Assembly (NCBI GenBank): GCA_020073665.1
Contig: JAIQEU010000016.1
Coordinates: 62,001-126,000, forward strand
Length of the DNA: 64,000 bases
Direction: 5' to 3'
DNA from: Terriglobia bacterium
GTDB lineage: Bacteria; Acidobacteriota; Terriglobia; Terriglobales; Acidobacteriaceae
Made by a program: the position numbers and the translations under genes. How positions within the stretch are numbered: the first letter of the stretch is position 1; each line of letters opens with the position of its first letter. Positions 1 through 62,747 of this stretch are shown piece after piece. The notes under the pieces are model-generated. The model was not told the DNA's origin and ran no database searches. It was given only the letters and a program-made list of their open reading frames with translations.

Positions 1-62
1 ATGAATCCCTAATGATAACAGCCGGGGAAAATGCCCCAGCTCGGGGGCCAGTTCCGCAAGCC

Positions 63-149
63 GCGAAGCGGCGAAAGAATGCAGCCCACGGCTTAAGCCG
101 TGGGTGGAAAGTAGAACATGTGCAAGCCCCTTTCAGGGGCGCAAGAAAC
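63..149. repeat. Interspersed two-hairpin repeat, copy 1
   Basis: Non-coding element made of two short hairpins. The first has arms CCCACGGC (85-92) and GCCGTGGG (97-104) around TTAA. The second has arms GCCCC (126-130) and GGGGC (136-140). The flanking words GCGAAGCGGCG and GAATGCAGCCC also occur in a second copy at 2771-2856, where the hairpin arms differ but pairing is kept. This is the behaviour of a REP-like palindromic element. Its mobilising enzyme is not in the window. Confidence 0.6.
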
Positions 150-158
150 CGCTGCTGA

Positions 159-719: not shown

Positions 720-732
720 ATTAATGCAGCAG

Positions 733-758
733 TTGGCATTTAGCACTTGGCATTTAGC
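733..758. repeat. Short direct word repeat upstream of hpt
   Basis: The 12-base word TTGGCATTTAGC occurs at 733-744 and 747-758. It belongs to the style of low-complexity intergenic word repeats seen elsewhere in this window and lies in the hpt 5' leader region. Confidence 0.5.
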
Positions 759-1185: not shown

Positions 1186-1220
1186 GCAAGCTGAGGGCTA
1201 ACAGCTAAGAGCTAGAAGCT
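1186..1220. repeat. AGCT word repeat
   Basis: Low-complexity intergenic stretch built from words such as AGCTGAGGGCTAACAGCT and AAGAGCTAGAAGCT. It fills the gap between the rhodanese and UPF0173 genes up to the ATG. Related copies lie at 2679-2710, 3221-3253 (inside bshB1) and 62655-62747. Confidence 0.6.
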
Positions 1221-1919: not shown

Positions 1920-1923
1920 TTGA

Positions 1924-1988
1924 TAATTTGTAATTGGAAATTTGTAATTGAGATCAAAATTACAAATTACAAAGCGCAAATTACAAAT
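1924..1988. repeat. AT-rich inverted word repeat
   Basis: AT-rich island in GC-rich surroundings made of TTTGTAATT words and their complements. The core is a perfect 11-bp hairpin: AATTTGTAATT at 1939-1949 pairs with AATTACAAATT at 1958-1968 around an 8-base loop. It may act as an mRNA 3'-end structure for the UPF0173 gene, but no clean T-tract follows. Confidence 0.6.
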
Positions 1989-2008
1989 CAGAATTCAGGA
2001 GCCAGCCT

Positions 2009-2678: not shown

Positions 2679-2710
2679 GGCTGTCAGCTCCCAGCCGTCA
2701 GCTCTCGGTC
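2679..2710. repeat. AGCT word repeat
   Basis: Words CTGTCAGCTC, CCAGCCGTCAGCTC and similar follow directly after the methyltransferase stop. Same family as 1186-1220. Confidence 0.5.
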
Positions 2711-2890: not shown

Positions 2891-3649
2891 CTAGATTGAT
2901 TTCACCGGAATGGCCAGCAGATCGTCCACCAGCCCCACTTCCTTCTGCAGAAACGGCTCGGCATAGTCCACTCCGCCCAGCATGCCGTAAAACCGCGCCA
3001 TAGCCTCGACGCGTGCGCGAATTTCGGCTTGGGCAGGGAATACATCTTTGCCCGCGTCCTGGTCGCTGTACTGCGACTTGTAGGCCATCAATGACTGGAA
3101 GCGGGTTTCGAACTGCTCGCTGATGTCCACCACAAAGGTGGGACGAATGTCGTAATAGAGCGTCGCATAAATGATCTTGAACGGGCGATGGGGCGCAAGA
3201 CTTGCAGCACCGGATGAACCGACAGCTGACGGCTGAGGGCTGATAGCTAATTTCCCCAATCCCGCCACAAAGCACGCCTCATATCCCAAAACCGAGGCCG
3301 TGTAATGGTCCGGATGCCGTCCCTGCCAGTAGGGCAGAATCAGCACCCGCGGCCGCTGCTCGCGAATGACGCGCGCCACCTTCAACTTGTTTTCCCAGGT
3401 GTTCTCCACCCGGCCGTCGGGAATATCAAGCGCCTGCCGCCAGGTCACCCGGAGAAGCTTGGCCGCCTCGGCGGCTTCACGGGCGCGGTCTTCCGAAGTA
3501 CCGCGCGTGCCCATCTCGCCTTGCGTCAGGTCGAGGATGCCAGTGCGGTAGCCGCGCTGCGCCATCTTCAGCAGCGTGCCGCCGCAGGTCTGTTCCACGT
3601 CATCGCGATGCGCGGCCAGGGCCAGTATGTCGAGCGGTGGTGTGGACAT
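2891..3649 (-). CDS. bshB1: Bacillithiol biosynthesis deacetylase BshB1
   Basis: Zn-dependent LmbE/PIG-L-fold deacetylase that removes acetyl from GlcNAc-malate in bacillithiol synthesis. The zinc motif appears as AHRDDVE (family AHPDD), and the second metal/substrate site is WQGRHPDHYTAS. The start at 3649 (MSTPPLDILALAAH) gives 252 residues. Residues after AGLGKL and before APHRPFKIIYA form an extra Ser/Pro/Ala-rich loop encoded by an AGCT-type intergenic repeat (3221-3253), an in-frame insertion. The start lies one base beyond the DUF190 stop, so it is probably translated from the fluoride-riboswitch transcript. Confidence 0.88.
   Translation of the reverse strand: MSTPPLDILALAAHRDDVEQTCGGTLLKMAQRGYRTGILDLTQGEMGTRGTSEDRAREAAEAAKLLRVTWRQALDIPDGRVENTWENKLKVARVIREQRPRVLILPYWQGRHPDHYTASVLGYEACFVAGLGKLAISPQPSAVGSSGAASLAPHRPFKIIYATLYYDIRPTFVVDISEQFETRFQSLMAYKSQYSDQDAGKDVFPAQAEIRARVEAMARFYGMLGGVDYAEPFLQKEVGLVDDLLAIPVKSI
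3221..3253. repeat. AGCT word repeat inside bshB1
   Basis: The words GACAGCTGACGGCTGAGGGC and TGATAGCT match the intergenic repeat family at 1186-1220 and 2679-2710, but here they lie within an open reading frame. On the minus strand they are translated as AISPQPSAVG. The frame is kept, so the insertion lengthens a loop rather than breaking the enzyme. Confidence 0.65.
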
Positions 3650-10566: not shown

Positions 10567-10652
10567 TAGCGAGTACTTAGTACCCGGTCCGAGCAACGCG
10601 AGCGTCTCGGGTTTTCTCGGTACTCGGTACTAGGTACTCGGCACTTTTCTCG
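10567..10652. repeat. GGTACTCG word repeat between convergent genes
   Basis: Words GAGTACTTAGTAC, TCGGTACTCGGTAC and TAGGTACTCGGCAC fill the space between the lipoprotein and acylase genes and run into the acylase C-terminus, whose stop lies inside the repeat. A CCGAG..CTCGG stem followed by GTTTTCT (about 10590-10617) could serve as a weak terminator for the lipoprotein gene. Confidence 0.55.
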
Positions 10653-13104
10653 GTTCCAGCAGCAGTTCATGCGCGCGTGCCTTGTCCACCGCGGGCTTGG
10701 AGAACGGCAAGGTGTAGGTAAATCCCTCGTACCAGGCTTTCCACTGGTCCATATAGTACGGGCTCAGGAAATTTCCTGACTGGCCAGTAACTAGGTTCAA
10801 GGTGGATTGGTCCAGGTTAGACAAGTCAACCGTCATGCGCTCCGAAGGGCCGTGGGTTCGAGTGACGGCTTTCACCGTGTATCCGCTGCCGGATTGCGGG
10901 TGCAGGCCGGGACCAGTCCAGGCCTTGAGAAAAGTAATTCTGCCCAGGATCGGATGCTGGATCTCGACTGGGTGGAACGGTCCCCATTTCCAGGAGTTCA
11001 GGTCGCGAGGTGCCTCCGCGTCGCCGACGGCCGCGCTGACCGCTGCTGCCAGCAGTTCGTCGTAGCCCGGATAGGCATCGGGCAGCCACCGTTTGGGCTG
11101 GTGCAAGAGGACATTCTCCAGCCACACCGACTGCATGCCCCAGTTATAGGTTTTCCAGCTCAGGGTGGCTTCAAGCTGGTGCCGGTCTTTCGGAGCCGGG
11201 CCGAGCTTGGGCTCCAGCAGCAGGCGCATCAACTCCACGCGCGCGCGATAGGCGATGGTGGGCGCGGCGGAATCCGCTGTCATGCGCCCGTCCCATCCTC
11301 GCATGATTTCTGCCGCCTCTTTGGCCCGGGCAGAGGCGTTCTTGGCATGATCCACGGCGTACACGAAGCGCTCGGCAAAGAAGCGATCCGGGTCGGAATA
11401 GATATCGGTTTCGAGCGCCAGCATGTCGGACGGAGAAAATTTCTTCCCCGATTCCAGCACCCGGTAGATGCGCGCCGCCCGCCAGGGCGCTTCCCACCCG
11501 GAGCTGATCGAATTCGGATAGTTGTCGGGCGAAATGCGGGCGTTGGCGGTGGCCGCGATTCCGGAGGGCGGATTGAAGACGCTGGGCAATTGTTCGAACG
11601 GAATGTATCCGGTCCACTCGTGGGCGTTGTCGCTGCCATCAACCGGCAGGCTGCCGTCCCCGGCGGCACGGATGGGAACCTTGCCGGTGGTCTGGTAGCC
11701 GATGTTGCCATCCACATCGGCATAGACCACGTTCTGGCCGGGGGCGTCCAGTTGGGAGAACGCGCCGCGGAATTCCTCCCAGTTCTGGGCGGAGTTAACT
11801 TCGAAGAACGGGTTTCGCACGCCCTCGTAAAGCGTCCAGCGCAGCGCCAGCTTGCGGGTCTCGCCGGGAACCAGTTCGCTGATGATCGGCCCATGGCGAG
11901 TGAGGACCACGTCCACCACCACGTCGGGCTTATTCTTCACGTGGATCACTTCTCGGCGATGCTCCGGCTGCTTCCAGCCGTCCGGGGTTTGATATTGGCC
12001 GTCGGCGTTGAAGTGCTCGATGTAGACGTCTTCCACGGTCGGGCCAACATTGGTGAAACCCCAGGCGATGCGCTGGTTGTGACCTACGGTGACGTAGGGT
12101 ATGCCGGGAAGAGTGACCCCGGCGACGTCGAAGCTGCCGCAGCGCAGGTGGGCTTCGTACCACAAGTTGGGCATCTGATGGCCCAGGTGCATGTCGTTCG
12201 ACAGCAGCGGCTTGCCGGAAACCGTGTGGGCTCCCGAGACCACCCAGTTGTTGGAGCCAACGACCCAATGTGATTCAGCGACAGCGGGCAGCGGCTGCGG
12301 AAAAACAGGTCGGTGGAGGCCAGTGACTGAGCTGTCTTCGCCAGTGTCGGAGTCGTCGTCCGGAGAAACAGAATTCTCGTCGAACTTGGGCCGCGAGACC
12401 GTCGGCGGACGGTCATGCCAGGAAGAATTCACAAACAGGTCGGTGGTCAGTTCCGGGCCGAGCTTCGCCAGTATTTTTTCGCGCGCCAGCGCATCGGCGT
12501 AGGGACCGTGGTTCAGTTCCTGCACCATCTCGGCGGCAATCAGAGTGGAGTCTTCCGGCTTCCAGGGCTGCGGCGAGTAGCGCAGGATCTGAAACTCCAG
12601 CGGCAGGCGGTCGCGATGCGATTCAATGTAGGCATTGACCCCGCGCGCATAGTCAGCAAAGTGCGCGCGATTCTGGTCGGAGGCCGCTGCCACCGCCAGA
12701 CGTGCCGCGACGCGCAGGCCCAGAATGCGCTGCTCCCGGTCGTGCTCGACAAAATCATCACCCAAAAGTTCGGCCAACTCGCCGGCGGCGGCCCGGCGCA
12801 TGATGTCCATTTGCCACAGCCGGTCTTGTGCGGTCACGTAGCCTTGCGCGAAGAAGAGATCGTCCAAGGTATTCGCATCGATGGTGGGAACGCCATGCGC
12901 GTCCCGGGCGACCGTGACTTTCGCCGACAAGCCGGGAACCTGCACCGTGCCGTCCAGTTGGGGCAGGGCGGAGTGCGCCAGGTGGTAAAAGACGCCGGAA
13001 GCCGCGAGTCCGGCGAGCACAACCGCTAACAGCAGGGACCCGGCGACCCGACCCCAGCGAAAACCCTGGCGCGAGGAAGAAACCGTAAGAGTGGTAGTGG
13101 CCAT
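10630..13104 (-). CDS. Penicillin acylase family (Ntn-hydrolase) protein
   Basis: 824-residue S45 amidohydrolase precursor with an N-terminal membrane anchor or signal (residues about 20-42). The alpha region carries RDAHGVPTIDA and GYVTAQDRLWQMD. The autoprocessing and nucleophile Ser is expected at residue 284 in VGSNNWVVSG, followed by SGKPLLSNDMHL. This family cleaves amide bonds of penicillins, acyl-homoserine lactones or other N-acyl compounds. The real substrate is unknown. An acidic linker (about residues 243-258) precedes the processing site. The last residues, KVPST, come from the adjoining word repeat. Confidence 0.9.
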   Translation of the reverse strand: MATTTLTVSSSRQGFRWGRVAGSLLLAVVLAGLAASGVFYHLAHSALPQLDGTVQVPGLSAKVTVARDAHGVPTIDANTLDDLFFAQGYVTAQDRLWQMDIMRRAAAGELAELLGDDFVEHDREQRILGLRVAARLAVAAASDQNRAHFADYARGVNAYIESHRDRLPLEFQILRYSPQPWKPEDSTLIAAEMVQELNHGPYADALAREKILAKLGPELTTDLFVNSSWHDRPPTVSRPKFDENSVSPDDDSDTGEDSSVTGLHRPVFPQPLPAVAESHWVVGSNNWVVSGAHTVSGKPLLSNDMHLGHQMPNLWYEAHLRCGSFDVAGVTLPGIPYVTVGHNQRIAWGFTNVGPTVEDVYIEHFNADGQYQTPDGWKQPEHRREVIHVKNKPDVVVDVVLTRHGPIISELVPGETRKLALRWTLYEGVRNPFFEVNSAQNWEEFRGAFSQLDAPGQNVVYADVDGNIGYQTTGKVPIRAAGDGSLPVDGSDNAHEWTGYIPFEQLPSVFNPPSGIAATANARISPDNYPNSISSGWEAPWRAARIYRVLESGKKFSPSDMLALETDIYSDPDRFFAERFVYAVDHAKNASARAKEAAEIMRGWDGRMTADSAAPTIAYRARVELMRLLLEPKLGPAPKDRHQLEATLSWKTYNWGMQSVWLENVLLHQPKRWLPDAYPGYDELLAAAVSAAVGDAEAPRDLNSWKWGPFHPVEIQHPILGRITFLKAWTGPGLHPQSGSGYTVKAVTRTHGPSERMTVDLSNLDQSTLNLVTGQSGNFLSPYYMDQWKAWYEGFTYTLPFSKPAVDKARAHELLLEPRKVPST

Positions 13105-26546: not shown

Positions 26547-29500
26547 ATGTCTTTACTTAAAAGGTGGGTTGCAGTGTGCGTGGTGGGTTTCGCCTGCCTG
26601 GCGTTTGGGCAGGAAATGCAGGAAGGCCGATTGATGCGTTTTCCTGATATTTACAAAGACAAGATCGTCTTCATGTATGGCGGCGACCTGTGGCTGGCGT
26701 CCAGCTCGGGAGGAGTGGCGCGGCAAATCACGTCGCACGCGGGCCGCGAACTGTTTCCCAAGTTCTCACCCGACGGCAAGTGGATCGCGTTCACCGGCCA
26801 GTACGATGGCAACTTCAACGTCTACGTGATGCCTGCCGAAGGTGGACAGCCGAAGCAACTGACTTTCTACCAGGGGTCCGCCCAGCCGCTGAGCGACCGC
26901 ATGGGCATCCTTAATGAAGTCGTCACCTGGTTTCCTGACGGCAAGCGGATTGTCTTCCTGTCGCGCAGCGATGCATCCAACGGATGGACCAAGCGTCCCT
27001 TCAGCGTCAGCATTGACGGTGGCTTGCCCGAACCGTTGCCCATGAACCAGGGCGGGCTGACCTCGTTTTCGCCGGATGGAAACAAGGTCGCGTACAACCA
27101 GATCTTCCGCAATTTCCGCCAGTGGAAGCGCTACACCGGCGGCCTTGCGCAGGACATTACCATCTACGACCTGAAGAACAACACCGTCGATGCCACCATA
27201 CCGCACACGGAGTGGACCGATTCCTTCCCTATGTGGCACGGCAACACCATCTATTTCAGTTCCGATCGCGGTCCCGAGCATCACCTCAACCTCTACAGTT
27301 ACGACCTGAACAGCAAGCAGGTGGAGCAGATCACGCACTTCACCGAGTTTGACGTGATGTGGCCGAGCCTGGGTCCGGACGGGATTGTTTTTGAAAACGC
27401 CGGATATCTGTACACCCTCGATTTCCAATCCAAAGAGCCGAAAAAGCTGACCATCTATGTGCCTGGAGAACACGACCAGAGCATGAAGCGTTGGGTCAGC
27501 GTCAGCAAGAACGTTTCGGACTTTGACATTTCGCCGGAAGGGAAGCGTGCGGTATTTTCCGCGCGCGGCGACGTCTTTACCGCGCCGGCCAAGGACGGCA
27601 GCGTTCGCAACCTGACCCGCACCCCCGGTATCCGCGAGAAAAACGTGGCTTGGTCTCCCGACGGGCGCTGGATCGCCTATGTTTCCGACCGCACCGGAGA
27701 AGATGAGATCTACATCACGCCGCACGATGGCATGGGCAAGGAGCAGCAGGTGACCAGCGGATACAAGGGCTTCAAGTATGGCCTGGTCTGGGCTCCCGAC
27801 AGCAAGAAGATTGCCTGGTCCGACAAGGATGTGCGCCTGTGGTATGTGGACATCAACGAGAAGAAACCGGTGCAGGTCGACCAGGGACACTACGGTGAAT
27901 TCGGGAACTACAACTGGTCTCCGGACAGCAAGTGGCTGGCCTACGACAAGAACGGGGAAAACTTTCTTTCGACGATAAACCTGTATTCGCTGGCCGACCG
28001 CAAAATCACTCCGGTCACCACCAGCATGACCAACAGCTACGCTCCCCTGTTTGATCCCGAAGGGAAATATCTTTACTTCCTTTCCGACCGTGACTTCAAC
28101 GAGGTACTCGGGAACATTGATTTCGAGTTCGCCAACCCTAAGACCACCCGGATCTACGTGGTGACCCTGAAGAAGGATGAGCCCTCGCCTTTCCCCGCAC
28201 TCAGCGACGAGGCCCAGGTAAAGAAAGAAGAGCCTGCCGCCAGCGCAACGGCTGCCAAGGGCGAAGCCAAAGCCGAGTCCAAAGACAAAGGCAAGGAAGC
28301 TAAGGACAACGATAAAGACAAAGATAAAGATAAAGATAAAGATAAAGATAAAGATAAAGACAAGGAGAAGCCGGTCGAGTTTCGCATTGACCTCGACGGC
28401 CTGCAGGAGCGGGTCGTGGCTCTGCCCACCGATCCGGCCGTGATTCGCTCGATCGGCGCGGCCAAGGGCTTCTTCTATTACACGACTGTGCCAATACAGG
28501 GGTTGGACGGCCCGCTCCCGGGCGAGACCTCAGCCCTCCGGGTTTACGACCTGAAGGAGCGCAAGAGCAAAGACCTGATCGACGGTGTGGAACGTTTTGC
28601 TATTTCCTTCGACGGTTCCAAAGTGCTGTATGAAGCGCGCGGTCCGGCGGGGCCGTCCTACGGGATCGTCGACGCCAAGCCCGATGGTGCGAAAAAGGTC
28701 GGCGACGGAGCACTCAACCTCGCGGGCATGCGGGCCGAGGTAGATCCACCCCAGGAGTGGAAGCAGATTTTTGAAGAAGTGTGGCGGCAGGAACGCGACT
28801 TCTTCTATGAAGCGGCCATGAACGGAGTGGACTGGCAGAAGATGCACGATAAGTACGCCCAGTTGCTGCCCTACGTAGCTGACCGCTACAGCCTGACCTA
28901 CATTCTGGGCGACATGATCGGCGAGCTCTCTAATTCGCACACCTACGTGGGCGGCGGAGACTTTCCCGACCTTCACCCGATAAATGTAGGTTTGCTGGGC
29001 GCCGACTATGAGGTCGACAAGGCCACCGGCATGTACCGCATCAAGAAAATCTATCCCGGGGAGAACTGGGACCAGAAGGTGCGTTCACCGCTCACCGAAC
29101 CGGGAGTGAATGTGAAGGAAGGTGACTACCTGGTAGCGATCAACGGCCGTGCCTTGAAAGCGCCACAGACCCCGTACGAGTTAATGGTCAACACGGTGAA
29201 CGAAACCGTGACCCTGACCATCAACTCGAAACCGTCCGAAGAAGGCTCCCACACCGTGCAGGTGAAACCCATCGGAGACGAGTATGACTTGCACGAACTG
29301 AACTGGATTGAAGGCAATCGCAAGAAAGTCGAAGCCGCCACCAAGGGGCGCGTGGGCTACGTCTACCTGCCCGACATGGGCGCGCCCGGCCTGGATGAAT
29401 TCGTGAAGCAGTACTTCCCGCAGGTCCGCAAAGAAGGCCTCATCTTCGACGTGCGTTACAACGGAGGAGGTTTTGTCGATCAACTCATCTTCGCGCGGCT

Positions 29501-29957
29501 GCGGCGGGTGCTGGCCGCCATGCAATCGGCGCGAAACTTTGAGAGCAACCCGTTTCCATTTCCGGTAGCCAACGCCTACATGGCCTGCATCACGAACCAC
29601 TACGCCGCTTCCGATGGGGACTTCTTCAGCTACTTCTTCAAGCAGTACAAGCTGGGGCCGCTCATTGGCGAGCGCACCTGGGGTGGAGTTCGCGGTATCC
29701 GCGGTCAGATGCCCCTGATTGACGGCGGGTACATTACCCGGCCGGAGTTCGCCCTCTATGGTCTGGACAGCAAGTGGCTAATCGAGAACAAGGGAGTGCA
29801 ACCTGACGTAGTGGTCGAGAACCGTCCCGACCTGGTGGTCAAGGGGCAGGATCCTCAACTGGAGAAAGCCATTGAGATGGTGATGAAGGAGATCCAGAAC
29901 AATCCCAAGAAGACGCCGCCGCGGCCTCCGGATTTGCCCGCGTACCGACCTCCATGA
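26547..29957 (+). CDS. Tricorn-like S41 protease
   Basis: 1136 residues with a signal peptide (cleavage near AFG-Q, residue 21). Residues about 35-560 are PD40/WD40-type propeller repeats (FSPDGKWIAFTGQ, WSPDGRWIAYVSD). A Lys/Asp-rich low-complexity linker lies near 565-610. The C-terminal half has the tricorn core, a PDZ domain (about 830-915) and the S41 region with Ser1022 in YAASDGDFF and the downstream G-G-V-R-G-I segment. It is an exported peptidase of the tricorn-homologue group, common in Acidobacteria. Confidence 0.92.
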   Translation: MSLLKRWVAVCVVGFACLAFGQEMQEGRLMRFPDIYKDKIVFMYGGDLWLASSSGGVARQITSHAGRELFPKFSPDGKWIAFTGQYDGNFNVYVMPAEGGQPKQLTFYQGSAQPLSDRMGILNEVVTWFPDGKRIVFLSRSDASNGWTKRPFSVSIDGGLPEPLPMNQGGLTSFSPDGNKVAYNQIFRNFRQWKRYTGGLAQDITIYDLKNNTVDATIPHTEWTDSFPMWHGNTIYFSSDRGPEHHLNLYSYDLNSKQVEQITHFTEFDVMWPSLGPDGIVFENAGYLYTLDFQSKEPKKLTIYVPGEHDQSMKRWVSVSKNVSDFDISPEGKRAVFSARGDVFTAPAKDGSVRNLTRTPGIREKNVAWSPDGRWIAYVSDRTGEDEIYITPHDGMGKEQQVTSGYKGFKYGLVWAPDSKKIAWSDKDVRLWYVDINEKKPVQVDQGHYGEFGNYNWSPDSKWLAYDKNGENFLSTINLYSLADRKITPVTTSMTNSYAPLFDPEGKYLYFLSDRDFNEVLGNIDFEFANPKTTRIYVVTLKKDEPSPFPALSDEAQVKKEEPAASATAAKGEAKAESKDKGKEAKDNDKDKDKDKDKDKDKDKDKEKPVEFRIDLDGLQERVVALPTDPAVIRSIGAAKGFFYYTTVPIQGLDGPLPGETSALRVYDLKERKSKDLIDGVERFAISFDGSKVLYEARGPAGPSYGIVDAKPDGAKKVGDGALNLAGMRAEVDPPQEWKQIFEEVWRQERDFFYEAAMNGVDWQKMHDKYAQLLPYVADRYSLTYILGDMIGELSNSHTYVGGGDFPDLHPINVGLLGADYEVDKATGMYRIKKIYPGENWDQKVRSPLTEPGVNVKEGDYLVAINGRALKAPQTPYELMVNTVNETVTLTINSKPSEEGSHTVQVKPIGDEYDLHELNWIEGNRKKVEAATKGRVGYVYLPDMGAPGLDEFVKQYFPQVRKEGLIFDVRYNGGGFVDQLIFARLRRVLAAMQSARNFESNPFPFPVANAYMACITNHYAASDGDFFSYFFKQYKLGPLIGERTWGGVRGIRGQMPLIDGGYITRPEFALYGLDSKWLIENKGVQPDVVVENRPDLVVKGQDPQLEKAIEMVMKEIQNNPKKTPPRPPDLPAYRPP
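28311..28364 (+). repeat. GATAAA hexanucleotide microsatellite in the protease gene
   Basis: Nine tandem 6-base units: GATAAA, GACAAA, six GATAAA, GACAAG. It encodes alternating Asp-Lys at about residues 589-606 in the linker between propeller and protease parts. Length changes by slippage would keep the frame and alter only linker length. Confidence 0.9.
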
Positions 29958-49163: not shown

Positions 49164-49796
49164 CTAACTCTTCACCAGAAACGGGTTGCTCTCCCGCTCT
49201 TCGCCGATCGTGGTCAGGCCTCCGTGGCCTGGCACGACAACGGTGTCATCGGGCAACGCGAGAACCTTCTCGTGCAGGGAATTGATGATTTTCTTGAACG
49301 AGCCGCCCGGCAGGTCGGTGCGGCCGATGCTTCCGGCAAACAGGGTGTCTCCCGCGATCAGCGTTTTCTCTACCGGGAAATACAAGCAGACGCTGCCTTC
49401 GGTGTGGCCGGGCGTGTGGAGCACGTTTGCGGTGAGGCCTCCGGCCTTGACGGTGTCGGCCTGGTCCACACTCTGGTCGATCTTCACTTCGCCGGGAGAG
49501 GGCATGCCAATCCACGATGCCTGCACGTCGAGCATCTTCAGCAGGGCATAGTCATTCTGGTTCAGCAGAATGGGAGCATTCGTGATCGCGCGCAGCTTCA
49601 TGGCGCCGCCAACGTGGTCTATGTGAGCGTGGGTGATGATGATCTGTTTGACCTGCAGATTGTGCTTGCGAACCAGGGCGAGGACGTCATCGATGTCGTC
49701 CCCGGGATCGATCACCATGGCCTCGCGTGTAGTCTCGTCGCCAATGACGGAGCAGTTGCACTGCAGCGGGCCAACGGGAAGGATTTCGTGAATCAT
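49164..49796 (-). CDS. Metallo-beta-lactamase-fold hydrolase (glyoxalase II-like)
   Basis: 210 residues. Metal motif THAHIDHVGG, further ligands in HTPGHTEGSV, GDTLFAGSIGR and VPGHGGLTTIG: the complete GloB-type dinuclear site. The short C-terminus lacks the glutathione-binding domain of true glyoxalase II, so the thioester could be another thiol, for example bacillithiol, given bshB1 in the window (inference). Downstream of secG across a word repeat. Confidence 0.88.
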   Translation of the reverse strand: MIHEILPVGPLQCNCSVIGDETTREAMVIDPGDDIDDVLALVRKHNLQVKQIIITHAHIDHVGGAMKLRAITNAPILLNQNDYALLKMLDVQASWIGMPSPGEVKIDQSVDQADTVKAGGLTANVLHTPGHTEGSVCLYFPVEKTLIAGDTLFAGSIGRTDLPGGSFKKIINSLHEKVLALPDDTVVVPGHGGLTTIGEERESNPFLVKS

Positions 49797-49797
49797 G

Positions 49798-49872
49798 GGG
49801 ATCAGTCGTCGGTCGTCAGTCGTCCGTCGTCAGCCAACACAGATACCTGACGACGGAGGACAGATGAGTGAC
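49798..49872. repeat. GTCGTCAGTCGTC word repeat
   Basis: GTCGTCGGTCGTCAGTCGTC, CGTCGTCAGCC and the complementary CTGACGACGGAGGAC fill the secG-MBL gap. Similar words lie at 5024-5040. Confidence 0.55.
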
Positions 49873-61502: not shown

Positions 61503-62672
61503 ATGCGCCGCGTCTATTTCGACAATAATGCCACCACGCCCGTGCTGCCCGAGGTCTTTGAGGCCATGCGCCCCTACTTCGGCGAGCAGTTCGGCAACGC
61601 CTCTTCCATCCATCACCACGGACAGGAAACTCGGGCGGCGGTGGAGCGTGCCCGCGAATCGGTGGCAGCGCTGCTAGGATGCCGGGCGTCGGAAATTGTC
61701 TTCACCAGCGGCGGCACCGAAGGCGACAACCTCGCCATTTTCGGATTGGCCAAGGCTGGCGATCACGTTGTCACCTCCACCCTCGAACATCATGCGGTCC
61801 TGAATGCCTGCAAGCATCTGGAGGGCGCGGGCTGCGAGATCACATTCGTCCCGGTCGACGGACGTGGACTGGTGGATCCGGATGACGTGCGCCGCGCCCT
61901 GCGCCCCAATACCAAGCTCATCACTGTGATGATGGCGAACAACGAAACCGGCGTGCGCCAGCCGGTGGAGGAAATTGGCAGGATCGCGGCCGAAGCCGAC
62001 GTCTACTTCCATAGCGATGGGGTGCAGGCAGCTGGGAAGGTTCCGATCGATGTAGCCCGTATCGGTTGCGATCTGCTCTCGATTTCGGGCCACAAGATGC
62101 ACGCTCCCCAGGGTGTAGGTGCGCTCTACGTGCGCAAGGGAACTCTTCTGCAGCCCATGCTCTATGGCGGCAGTCACGAGCGCTCGCGGCGCGCGGGCAC
62201 GGAAAATGTACCCGGCATCGTCGCCCTGGGCAAGGCGGCGGAACTGGCCCGGGAAGGATTGGCCGACGGCAGTGTCGCTCGCATCGCCGCCCTGCGCGAT
62301 CGCATCGAGCAGACGATTCTGGAATCCGTCGAAGCTACGGGTGTAAACGGAGCGGACGCGCCGCGCGTACCTAACACTGTGAACATCCATTTCGATTACA
62401 TCGAAGGTGAGGCGCTCGTGATCGCTCTCGACTTGAAGGGACTGGCGGTCTCGACTGGCGCGGCTTGTTCGTCCGGAGCAATTGAACCCTCGCACGTGTT
62501 GACTGCCATGGGACTGACACCGGACCGTGCCCGTGCCAGCTTACGCTTCAGCCTGGGCAAGCAGAACACCGCGGAAGATGTCGATTTTGCCCTGCAACTG
62601 GTTCCCAGTACTGTTGCCCGACTGCGCGAACTGTCTCCCGTTTACAATAGGAAACAAGCTATTAGCTCCTAG
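61503..62672 (+). CDS. iscS: Cysteine desulfurase
   Basis: 389 residues from MRRVYFDNNATTPV. PLP Lys198 in SGHKMHAPQG, catalytic Cys322 in STGAACSSGAIEPS, with the long group I type loop after Cys. Produces persulfide sulfur from cysteine. It lies 79 bases before mnmA, on the same strand, which points to sulfur supply for tRNA thiolation. The last residues (AISS) and stop are formed by the adjoining AGCT word repeat. Symbol by family, since no isc cluster is present. Confidence 0.92.
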   Translation: MRRVYFDNNATTPVLPEVFEAMRPYFGEQFGNASSIHHHGQETRAAVERARESVAALLGCRASEIVFTSGGTEGDNLAIFGLAKAGDHVVTSTLEHHAVLNACKHLEGAGCEITFVPVDGRGLVDPDDVRRALRPNTKLITVMMANNETGVRQPVEEIGRIAAEADVYFHSDGVQAAGKVPIDVARIGCDLLSISGHKMHAPQGVGALYVRKGTLLQPMLYGGSHERSRRAGTENVPGIVALGKAAELAREGLADGSVARIAALRDRIEQTILESVEATGVNGADAPRVPNTVNIHFDYIEGEALVIALDLKGLAVSTGAACSSGAIEPSHVLTAMGLTPDRARASLRFSLGKQNTAEDVDFALQLVPSTVARLRELSPVYNRKQAISS

Positions 62673-62747
62673 CTCCTAGCTCCTAGCTCTTAGCGATTAG
62701 CTGGGGCTATCGGTCGCAATCGTCGGTGAGCTAAGAGCCAGAAGCCG
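62655..62747. repeat. AGCTCCT tandem word repeat
   Basis: TAGCTCCTAGCTCCTAGCTC and flanking AGCTATTAGCTC/TTAGCGATTAGC make a tandem array starting inside the cysteine desulfurase C-terminus, with a second GAGCTAAGAGCCAGAAGCC word at 62729-62747 just before the mnmA ATG. Same family as 1186-1220. Confidence 0.7.

What the first reader, a model, noticed from the sequence alone, without database searches (positions are those of the whole stretch)
3221..3253. Intergenic word repeat inserted in frame in bshB1
The AGCT word family found in gaps at 1186, 2679 and 62655 also occurs inside bshB1, adding a Ser/Pro/Ala loop before APHRPFKIIYA while the catalytic motifs stay intact. This recalls the palindromic elements that enter coding genes in Rickettsia.
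Basis: partly seen in the sequence, partly recalled or inferred. Interest (0 to 1): 0.5.

Follow-up and report, generated by a model that had tools for sequence, protein, structure and literature searches.

The report
Enzyme loop that collects genomic repeats
In these bacteria one loop of an otherwise length-constant enzyme appears to pick up, in reading frame, short repeats that mostly lie between genes, so that repeat DNA becomes protein at a spot that can bear it.

Summary
Window 3221-3250, inside bshB1 (minus strand), is a degenerate tandem heptamer array of the family found in the gaps at 1189, 2684 and 62657. The genome has 52 pattern hits against 0 in the reversed control. In 155 distinct BshB1 loci all length variation between the first catalytic motif and the stop falls in this loop: 9-78 residues, with 116 and 99 on either side in 155 of 155. 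In 14 parsed distant homologs it has 9-11. Loops hold unrelated repeats: heptamers of several words (lag-7 z 16), GTAG-type REPs (12 loci), CTTCGAC..CTCAG (2 genomes). 61 of 76 close pairs differ in loop length. A RecA-like gene has two such loops. Perfect units are stop-free on this strand and carry stops on the other. Best reading: chance capture in a permissive loop, seen through survival. It works like Rickettsia palindromic elements but fails their definition, being a non-palindromic 30-base array. What spreads the heptamers is unknown.

The parts
2891..3649 (-). bshB1, bacillithiol biosynthesis deacetylase, 252 aa
   Evidence: TIGR04001 227.3 bits, cut-off 182.5; PIG-L Pfam; a BshC gene also in the genome
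3191..3256 (-). hypervariable loop, 22 residues GKLAISPQPSAVGSSGAASLAP between helix and strand (9 residues in the short form)
   Evidence: model pLDDT under 50 at residues 139-148
3221..3250 (-). in-frame heptamer array TTAGCTA TCAGCCC TCAGCCG TCAGCTG TC
1189..1220 (-). gap copy of the heptamer array (AGCTTCT AGCTCTT AGCTGTT AGCCCTC AGCT), reaching up to the start codon at 1221
2684..2709 (+). gap copy of the heptamer array just after the stop of the ORF ending at 2674
62657..62703 (+). gap copy of the heptamer array (TAGCTCC word)
62729..62746 (-). shorter inverse arm opposite the array at 62657
   Evidence: the pair does not fold better than shuffles (z -0.11)
728..758 (+). gap array of a related heptamer word (AGCACTT GGCATTT)

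Best explanation
A loop of BshB1, between the helix that follows the HPDH motif and the next strand, tolerates very varied added peptides. Short interspersed repeats of the genome (tandem heptamer arrays, GTAG-type REPs, CTTCGAC..CTCAG repeats) that land there in frame and free of stops are kept, while copies landing elsewhere in the gene are purged; they then decay or are replaced. The window's insert is one such capture. Perfect AGCYNTC units are stop-free in all three frames of this strand and read as the same cyclic heptapeptide (S-x-Q-P/L-S-A-x) in any frame; the window's array, because of its leading TTAG, is open in two frames of three. Shown: the repeats, their place, orientation, variety, and different loops in close relatives. 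Inferred: neutrality, the order insertion then decay, exposure of the loop, and a RAYT-type transposase as mover of the REPs. Unknown: what spreads the heptamers.
For: Length is fixed on both sides of the loop in 155 of 155 distinct loci and varies from 9 to 78 inside; the core aligns without gaps, 222 of 222 columns kept. Base identity at lags 7, 14 and 21 in the 109 loops over 13 aa exceeds codon shuffles by z 16.1, 11.6 and 7.9, and the rest of the gene has no such peak. Different heptamer words occupy the loop (AGCTCTC, GAAACTA, CTCAGAA, CGCAACT, ATCAGGG). The GAAAC word of L057 has 72 hits in its own genome G073 and 0 in the control, two overlapping ones inside bshB1. TCAGC arrays of score 12 or more: 39 loops sense, 0 antisense, 0.57 expected; at 11 it is 48 and 3. 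GTAG-REP: 138 hits in G051, 0 in the control, one inside its bshB1; in frame in 12 loci, 0 off-frame or antisense; third positions of the element are more alike than those of the flanks in 66 of 66 pairs. 61 of 76 pairs with core identity of 92% or more differ in loop length; L116 and L133 share 98.2% of the core and have different loops. A RecA-like gene has two variable loops with period 7 (18 aligned copies). TIGR04001 is over its cut-off with a 9-, 22- and 78-residue loop.
Against: Heptamer-rich genomes have longer loops (Spearman 0.50 over 107 genomes), but with kinship taken into account there are only 5 supported independent pairs and no significance; 3 of the 15 genomes with a heptamer loop have no hit of the genome pattern. 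Two repeat-like peptides were not shown to be multi-copy in the genomes that carry them: HGFSRAER and ASAVASVVAGE. The GAAAC word is also common in genomes whose loop lacks it (25 hits in G000, 61 in G051), so abundance does not predict the loop. 11 of 12 GTAG-REPs sit at the same distance from HRPFK and in the same frame, which fits one old insertion kept alike by exchange as well as repeated insertion. Heptamer elements are less alike overall than the flanks (median 0.73 against 0.77), though more alike at third positions (0.70 against 0.49). The closest relatives L032 and L033 have a 17-residue loop without the array, so decay and fresh insertion cannot be told apart for the window's copy. 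The tree is weak (65 of 152 inner branches open).
Confidence: 0.75

Rival explanations
1. The array grew in place by replication slippage from a chance seed in the loop and owes nothing to the gap repeats.
For: Tandem 7-mers can grow by slippage (general knowledge); the units are degenerate.
Against: The word matches the genome's dispersed family (52 hits, 0 control); L057 carries the GAAAC word that is dispersed in its own genome; one added 7-mer shifts the frame; loops also hold GTAG-REPs, which slippage of a heptamer cannot make.
Confidence: 0.12
2. The loop is a preferred DNA target: a transposase or recombination system inserts repeats at this very site.
For: GTAG-REPs in 11 of 12 loci stand exactly 4 codons before HRPFK, all in one orientation and frame; 12 carriers need 12 changes on the tree.
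Against: Unrelated repeats share the loop; a second gene has repeat-bearing loops; one frame and orientation can come from survival alone; L053 has another distance.
Confidence: 0.1
3. One ancestral expansion of the loop, inherited and drifting, with homogenising exchange between gene and gap copies.
For: Many heptamer loops share the left junction KLA[ILV]S; partial REP ends (GAT) persist in some loops.
Against: Different heptamer words and REP families in different loci; short loops nested among long ones; near-identical cores with different loops.
Confidence: 0.2
4. The added peptide has a function (for example partner binding or oligomer control) and is selected.
For: The expansion is present in most parsed loci (109 of 155 loops over 13 aa).
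Against: Sequence and length are often not kept even between close pairs; low model confidence suggests disorder; 9-residue loops recur within the clade.
Confidence: 0.08

Closest known systems
Rickettsia palindromic elements (RPE; known to me here from passages of the review PMC2229807)
   Same: Interspersed repeat that is also found in frame inside conserved genes, with at least one such enzyme active
   Different: RPE are 105-146 bp palindromes; the window's insert is a 30-base tandem heptamer array without a hairpin better than shuffles
TAACTGA heptamer repeats of Beggiatoaceae and Cyanobacteria (MacGregor 2015, PMC4679880; passages and section 15 read)
   Same: Dispersed direct heptamer arrays, mostly in gaps; one orientation gives stops in all frames, the other is open; the complement TCAGTTA resembles TCAGCYN
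   Different: Different, here more degenerate word; there most ORF copies lie at protein ends or in short hypothetical proteins, here in an internal loop of a conserved enzyme in many species
GTAG/CGTC-tagged REPs inside ORFs (Di Nocera and others 2013, PMC3733652; passages and section 15 read)
   Same: GTAG-tagged palindromes within ORFs; recB of two Xanthomonas species hit at about the same site; RAYT transposases
   Different: In the passages seen, the phyla named for GTAG repeats do not include Acidobacteria, whose RAYTs are mentioned; here one loop holds several unrelated families including heptamers
Intragenic RU/ERIC elements of enterobacteria (Delihas 2007, PMC2759123; passages seen)
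   Same: Small mobile repeats translated as part of genes
   Different: Different elements (103-168 bp); no recurrent loop in the passages seen

Membership tests
Rickettsia palindromic element | multi-copy repeat shared by gaps and genes | tested here: met
   52 hits, control 0
Rickettsia palindromic element | in-frame insertion in a conserved gene, absent from distant homologs | tested here: met
   (14 of 21 distant loci parsed)
Rickettsia palindromic element | palindrome of about 105-146 bp | tested here: not met
   30-base tandem array; fold z -0.79
TAACTGA heptamer repeats | direct repeats of exactly TAACTGA/TCAGTTA | tested here: not met
   units of the window's array are TCAGCYN after a leading TTAGCTA
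TAACTGA heptamer repeats | stop codons in every frame of one strand, none in the other | tested here: met
   8 of 8 perfect unit variants AGCYNTC; the window's own array has a stop in one sense frame from its leading TTAG
GTAG-REP (a second loop family, in relatives) | GTAG-tagged short palindrome in high copy, often as inverted pairs | tested here: met
   ends GGCGCTAC (complement GTAGCGCC); 138 hits in G051, 23 in G000, inverted pairs visible in both listings of G051
GTAG-REP (a second loop family, in relatives) | RAYT transposase gene flanked by the repeat | tested here: inconclusive
   of 57 Y1_Tnp matches in 8 genomes 12 loci were examined: L291 (the window's genome) has a full repeat on one side and only an 8-base end match on the other; 11 have neither
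BshB1 deacetylase | equivalog model over its cut-off | tested here: met
   TIGR04001 227.3 against 182.5
BshB1 deacetylase | deacetylase activity with the expanded loop | not testable with these tools
   needs an assay

The most novel reading that the evidence does not exclude
The heptamer arrays are a kind of mobile repeat not described as such in the papers I found: tandem 7-base arms, of any of several words, often laid out as inverted pairs with starts about 40-70 bases apart, spread by an unknown agent through this bacterial family. Single arms of them, together with REPs, repeatedly enter the same permissive loops of BshB1 and of a RecA-like protein, so that these loops are standing landing pads where protein sequence is renewed from gap DNA between close relatives.
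Probability: 0.3. Interest if true: 0.7.

Novelty: new variant of a known kind. Interest (0 to 1): 0.52.

Why it matters
In-frame capture of repeats by genes is known from Rickettsia, enterobacteria and REP-rich genomes. Here is one protein position, sampled in 155 loci, where several unrelated repeat families are found while the rest of the enzyme keeps its length. That makes the gain and loss of protein segments from repeat DNA measurable, gives a natural set of loop variants of one enzyme, and may serve as a trap for active repeats. It also suggests that Ser/Ala/Gln-rich stretches in such proteins may derive from repeats.

Tried and rejected
Chance: rejected by the reversed-pattern control and the period-7 test. 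Palindrome reading of the window's insert: rejected. Loop conserved in distant homologs: rejected (14 of 21 distant loci parsed, 7 not recognised by my script). HGFSRAER and ASAVASVVAGE as multi-copy repeats: not supported with the patterns used. Genome heptamer content as driver of loop length: raw correlation present, not significant after kinship correction. Comparison of the model with solved structures: BshB and related deacetylases lead the Foldseek list, but with rmsd about 15-16 and TM 0.56-0.58 for the BshB entries, so I use the model only for the position and low confidence of the loop. Genes over the 36 heptamer sites: the longest ORF over a site was 120 aa or more in 20 cases; all 20 were scanned with Pfam and 5 matched: bshB1, a RecA-like gene, a polysaccharide deacetylase and an M28 peptidase (both with the array at the C-terminal end), and a GNAT gene (array near the N-terminal end, probably before the true start). 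Second-longest ORFs were not scanned. Print: searches returned no paper; the papers listed show, by title and start of abstract, none on heptamers in Acidobacteria or on repeats in BshB; of these I opened only PMC2229807, PMC4679880, PMC4692102, PMC3733652 and PMC2759123. The 4 papers were seen as a listing only.

Full report
What is there. The window lies in a genome of 5.42 Mb (G000); the named relatives found by its BshB1 are acidobacterial assemblies (Candidatus Sulfotelmatobacter, Acidobacteriaceae, Terriglobia and others). The minus-strand gene 2891-3649 encodes a 252-aa protein that passes the equivalog cut-off for bacillithiol deacetylase BshB1, and the genome also has BshC. Inside it, 3221-3250 reads on the coding strand TTAGCTA TCAGCCC TCAGCCG TCAGCTG TC, a degenerate tandem heptamer. 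The same family lies in gaps at 1189-1220, 2684-2709 and 62657-62703. In the whole genome the pattern AGCYNNCAGCYNNCAGCY has 52 hits and its reversed control none; they merge to 36 sites.

The loop in relatives. I parsed the loop in 187 of 190 BshB1 loci, 155 of them distinct. From the first catalytic motif to the loop is 116 residues in 155 of 155, and from HRPFK to the stop is 99 in 155 of 155; the loop itself runs from 9 (33 loci) to 78 residues. The sample is not random: it is the best hits of two searches plus 80 further matches of the first. In other families of the phylum the loop has 9-11 residues (14 parsed of 21 loci), and the alignments with three solved homologs leave out 11-13 residues here.

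What fills it. Among the 109 loops over 13 aa, base identity at lags 7, 14 and 21 stands z 16.1, 11.6 and 7.9 above codon shuffles, lags 6 and 8 do not exceed them, and the rest of the gene shows no such peak. 30 of 109 hold a 28-base stretch with at least 15 of 21 matches at lag 7; 20 shuffles give 0.05 on average. The words differ: AGCTCTC, CACTCAG, AGTTCTC, GAAACTA, CTCAGAA, CGCAACT, ATCAGGG. The GAAAC word of L057 has 72 hits in its own genome G073 and 0 in the control, and the hits at G073:C144:1970-1995 lie inside its bshB1. The word is also common in genomes whose loop lacks it (25 in G000, 61 in G051) and absent from two short-loop genomes. A second kind is a GTAG-tagged palindrome, GAGGGCGGGACGCCCTCAGGACAGCCGGCAAGATGCCGGCGCTAC, whose right part has 138 pattern hits in G051 and 0 in the control, many as inverted pairs; the hit at G051:C75:16678 lies inside bshB1. 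In L040, L053 and L120 the inserted stretch begins and ends like complete gap copies of G051 such as L251, with a different middle. A third, CCTTCGAC..CTCAGG, has 35 hits in G027 (1 in the control) and 9 in G091 (0), including their bshB1 copies; it is also found in genomes without it in the loop. Two further repeat-like peptides were not shown to be multi-copy in their genomes.

Orientation and frame. All 8 perfect AGCYNTC units are free of stops in three frames on this strand and have stops in all three on the other; the window's own array, with its leading TTAG, has a stop in one sense frame. 39 loops hold a TCAGC array of score 12 or more in sense and none in antisense; codon shuffles give 0.57; at score 11 it is 48 and 3; the rest of the gene gives 8 of 1776 windows at 12 and none at 13. 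The 12 GTAG-REPs are all in one frame and strand.

Turnover. Of 76 pairs of loci with at least 92% core identity, 61 differ in loop length. L116 and L133 share 98.2% of the core and have different loops; L078 and L081 share 97.3% and differ by a stretch with a GTAG-REP. On the core tree the 12 REP carriers need 12 changes, the 39 heptamer loops 25, and loops up to 13 aa against longer ones 16; the tree has weak support. In 66 of 66 pairs the REP is more alike at third positions than the flanks (medians 0.79 and 0.51), which points to recent arrival or exchange with other copies. For the heptamers third positions have medians 0.70 and 0.49 over 105 pairs, but overall identity is lower than in the flanks (0.73 and 0.77). 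Both sets were chosen by likeness to the motif, which inflates such figures.

A second gene. Of the 36 heptamer sites of the genome, 5 lie in ORFs with a Pfam match. Besides bshB1 the clear internal case is a RecA-like gene with an ImuA match far below its cut-off. Of 30 loci from a search of 60 genomes, 18 passed my motif and were aligned: two variable loops, 15-54 and 20-51 residues, with lag-7 z 5.0 and 9.4. Peptides in single copies include SAFSSQLSATNK, QRHRDTEKT and HAERSEAS..RFARND; that the last two come from gap repeats is my recollection, not tested. One CCTTCGAC..CTCAGG hit of G027 lies in this gene. So the property is not confined to BshB1.

Mechanism. In the model the loop lies between helix 113-129 and strand 158-163, with confidence under 50 at residues 139-148; with a 78-residue loop 161-204 is under 50. 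Most likely repeats land in many places, and in genes only in-frame, stop-free copies in such loops or at protein ends survive. For GTAG-REPs a mover is plausible but not shown: one Y1 transposase gene of this genome (L291) has a full repeat on one side and an 8-base end match (GGCGCTAC complement) on the other, while 11 other Y1 loci examined, of 57 matches in 8 genomes, have neither. For the heptamers no mover is known. In gaps they sometimes form inverted pairs: 7 of 38 examined sites (36 distinct, two counted twice; two of the 7 are each other's partner) have an opposite arm downstream within 120 bases, 0 of 38 upstream, 2 of 292 control stretches. For the GAAAC word there are 8 pairs one way and 0 the other in G051 (36 arrays as scripted, one of them split in two), and 2 and 0 among 42 arrays of G073, with starts 38-71 bases apart. 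The bshB1 copy of the window has no such second arm (score 8 on either side), which the stops of that arm would explain.

Results against. Heptamer-rich genomes tend to have long loops (Spearman 0.50, 107 genomes; the 15 heptamer-loop genomes are richer than the 92 others, p 0.002, though 3 of the 15 have no hit), but with kinship taken into account there are only 5 supported pairs and no significance. The closest relatives L032 and L033 have 17-residue loops without an array, so the age of the window's array is open. 11 of 12 REPs stand at the same codon, which one old insertion with later exchange would also give.

What is known. RPE in Rickettsia genes (passages), TAACTGA heptamers inside ORFs of Beggiatoaceae (passages and section 15), and REPs within ORFs including recB of two Xanthomonas species at about the same site (passages and section 15) are in print; heptameric repeats over-represented in bacteria are noted in PMC4692102 (passages). 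In the searches named under Tried and rejected I did not find a report of a single protein loop holding several unrelated repeat families across a bacterial family, or of these heptamers in Acidobacteria. The library holds open-licence papers only.

Noticed in passing
window 1921-1990: A+T-rich heptamer arrays (AATTTGT.. and ..AAATTAC) as an inverted pair in a gap; the stretch 1921-1992 folds as a hairpin far better than shuffles (z -4.17).
   Followed up: partly
window 10616-10645: CTCGGTA heptamers overlap the 3' end of the 824-aa ORF 10630-13104 (-), which ends RKVPST.
   Followed up: no
window 49802-49833: TCAGTCG heptamers just upstream of the ORF 49164-49796 (-).
   Followed up: no
window 55-150 and 2765-2855: Two gap stretches share AAGAATGCAGCCC and, read by eye, hairpin-like arms that differ in sequence.
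   Followed up: partly
window 28280-28363: Tandem repeat of period 6 (CAAAGA) inside the 1136-aa ORF 26547-29957 (+).
   Followed up: no
L229/L255 (G000:C35:46288-47175): RecA-like gene with two variable loops bearing repeat-like peptides, also in the 17 relatives aligned.
   Followed up: partly
L018 and L221 (G000): The ORFs of a polysaccharide deacetylase and an M28 peptidase run into sense heptamer arrays at their C-terminal ends.
   Followed up: partly
L291 (G000:C16 about 117748): Y1 transposase (RAYT-like) gene with a full GTAG-REP on one side and an 8-base REP-end match on the other.
   Followed up: partly
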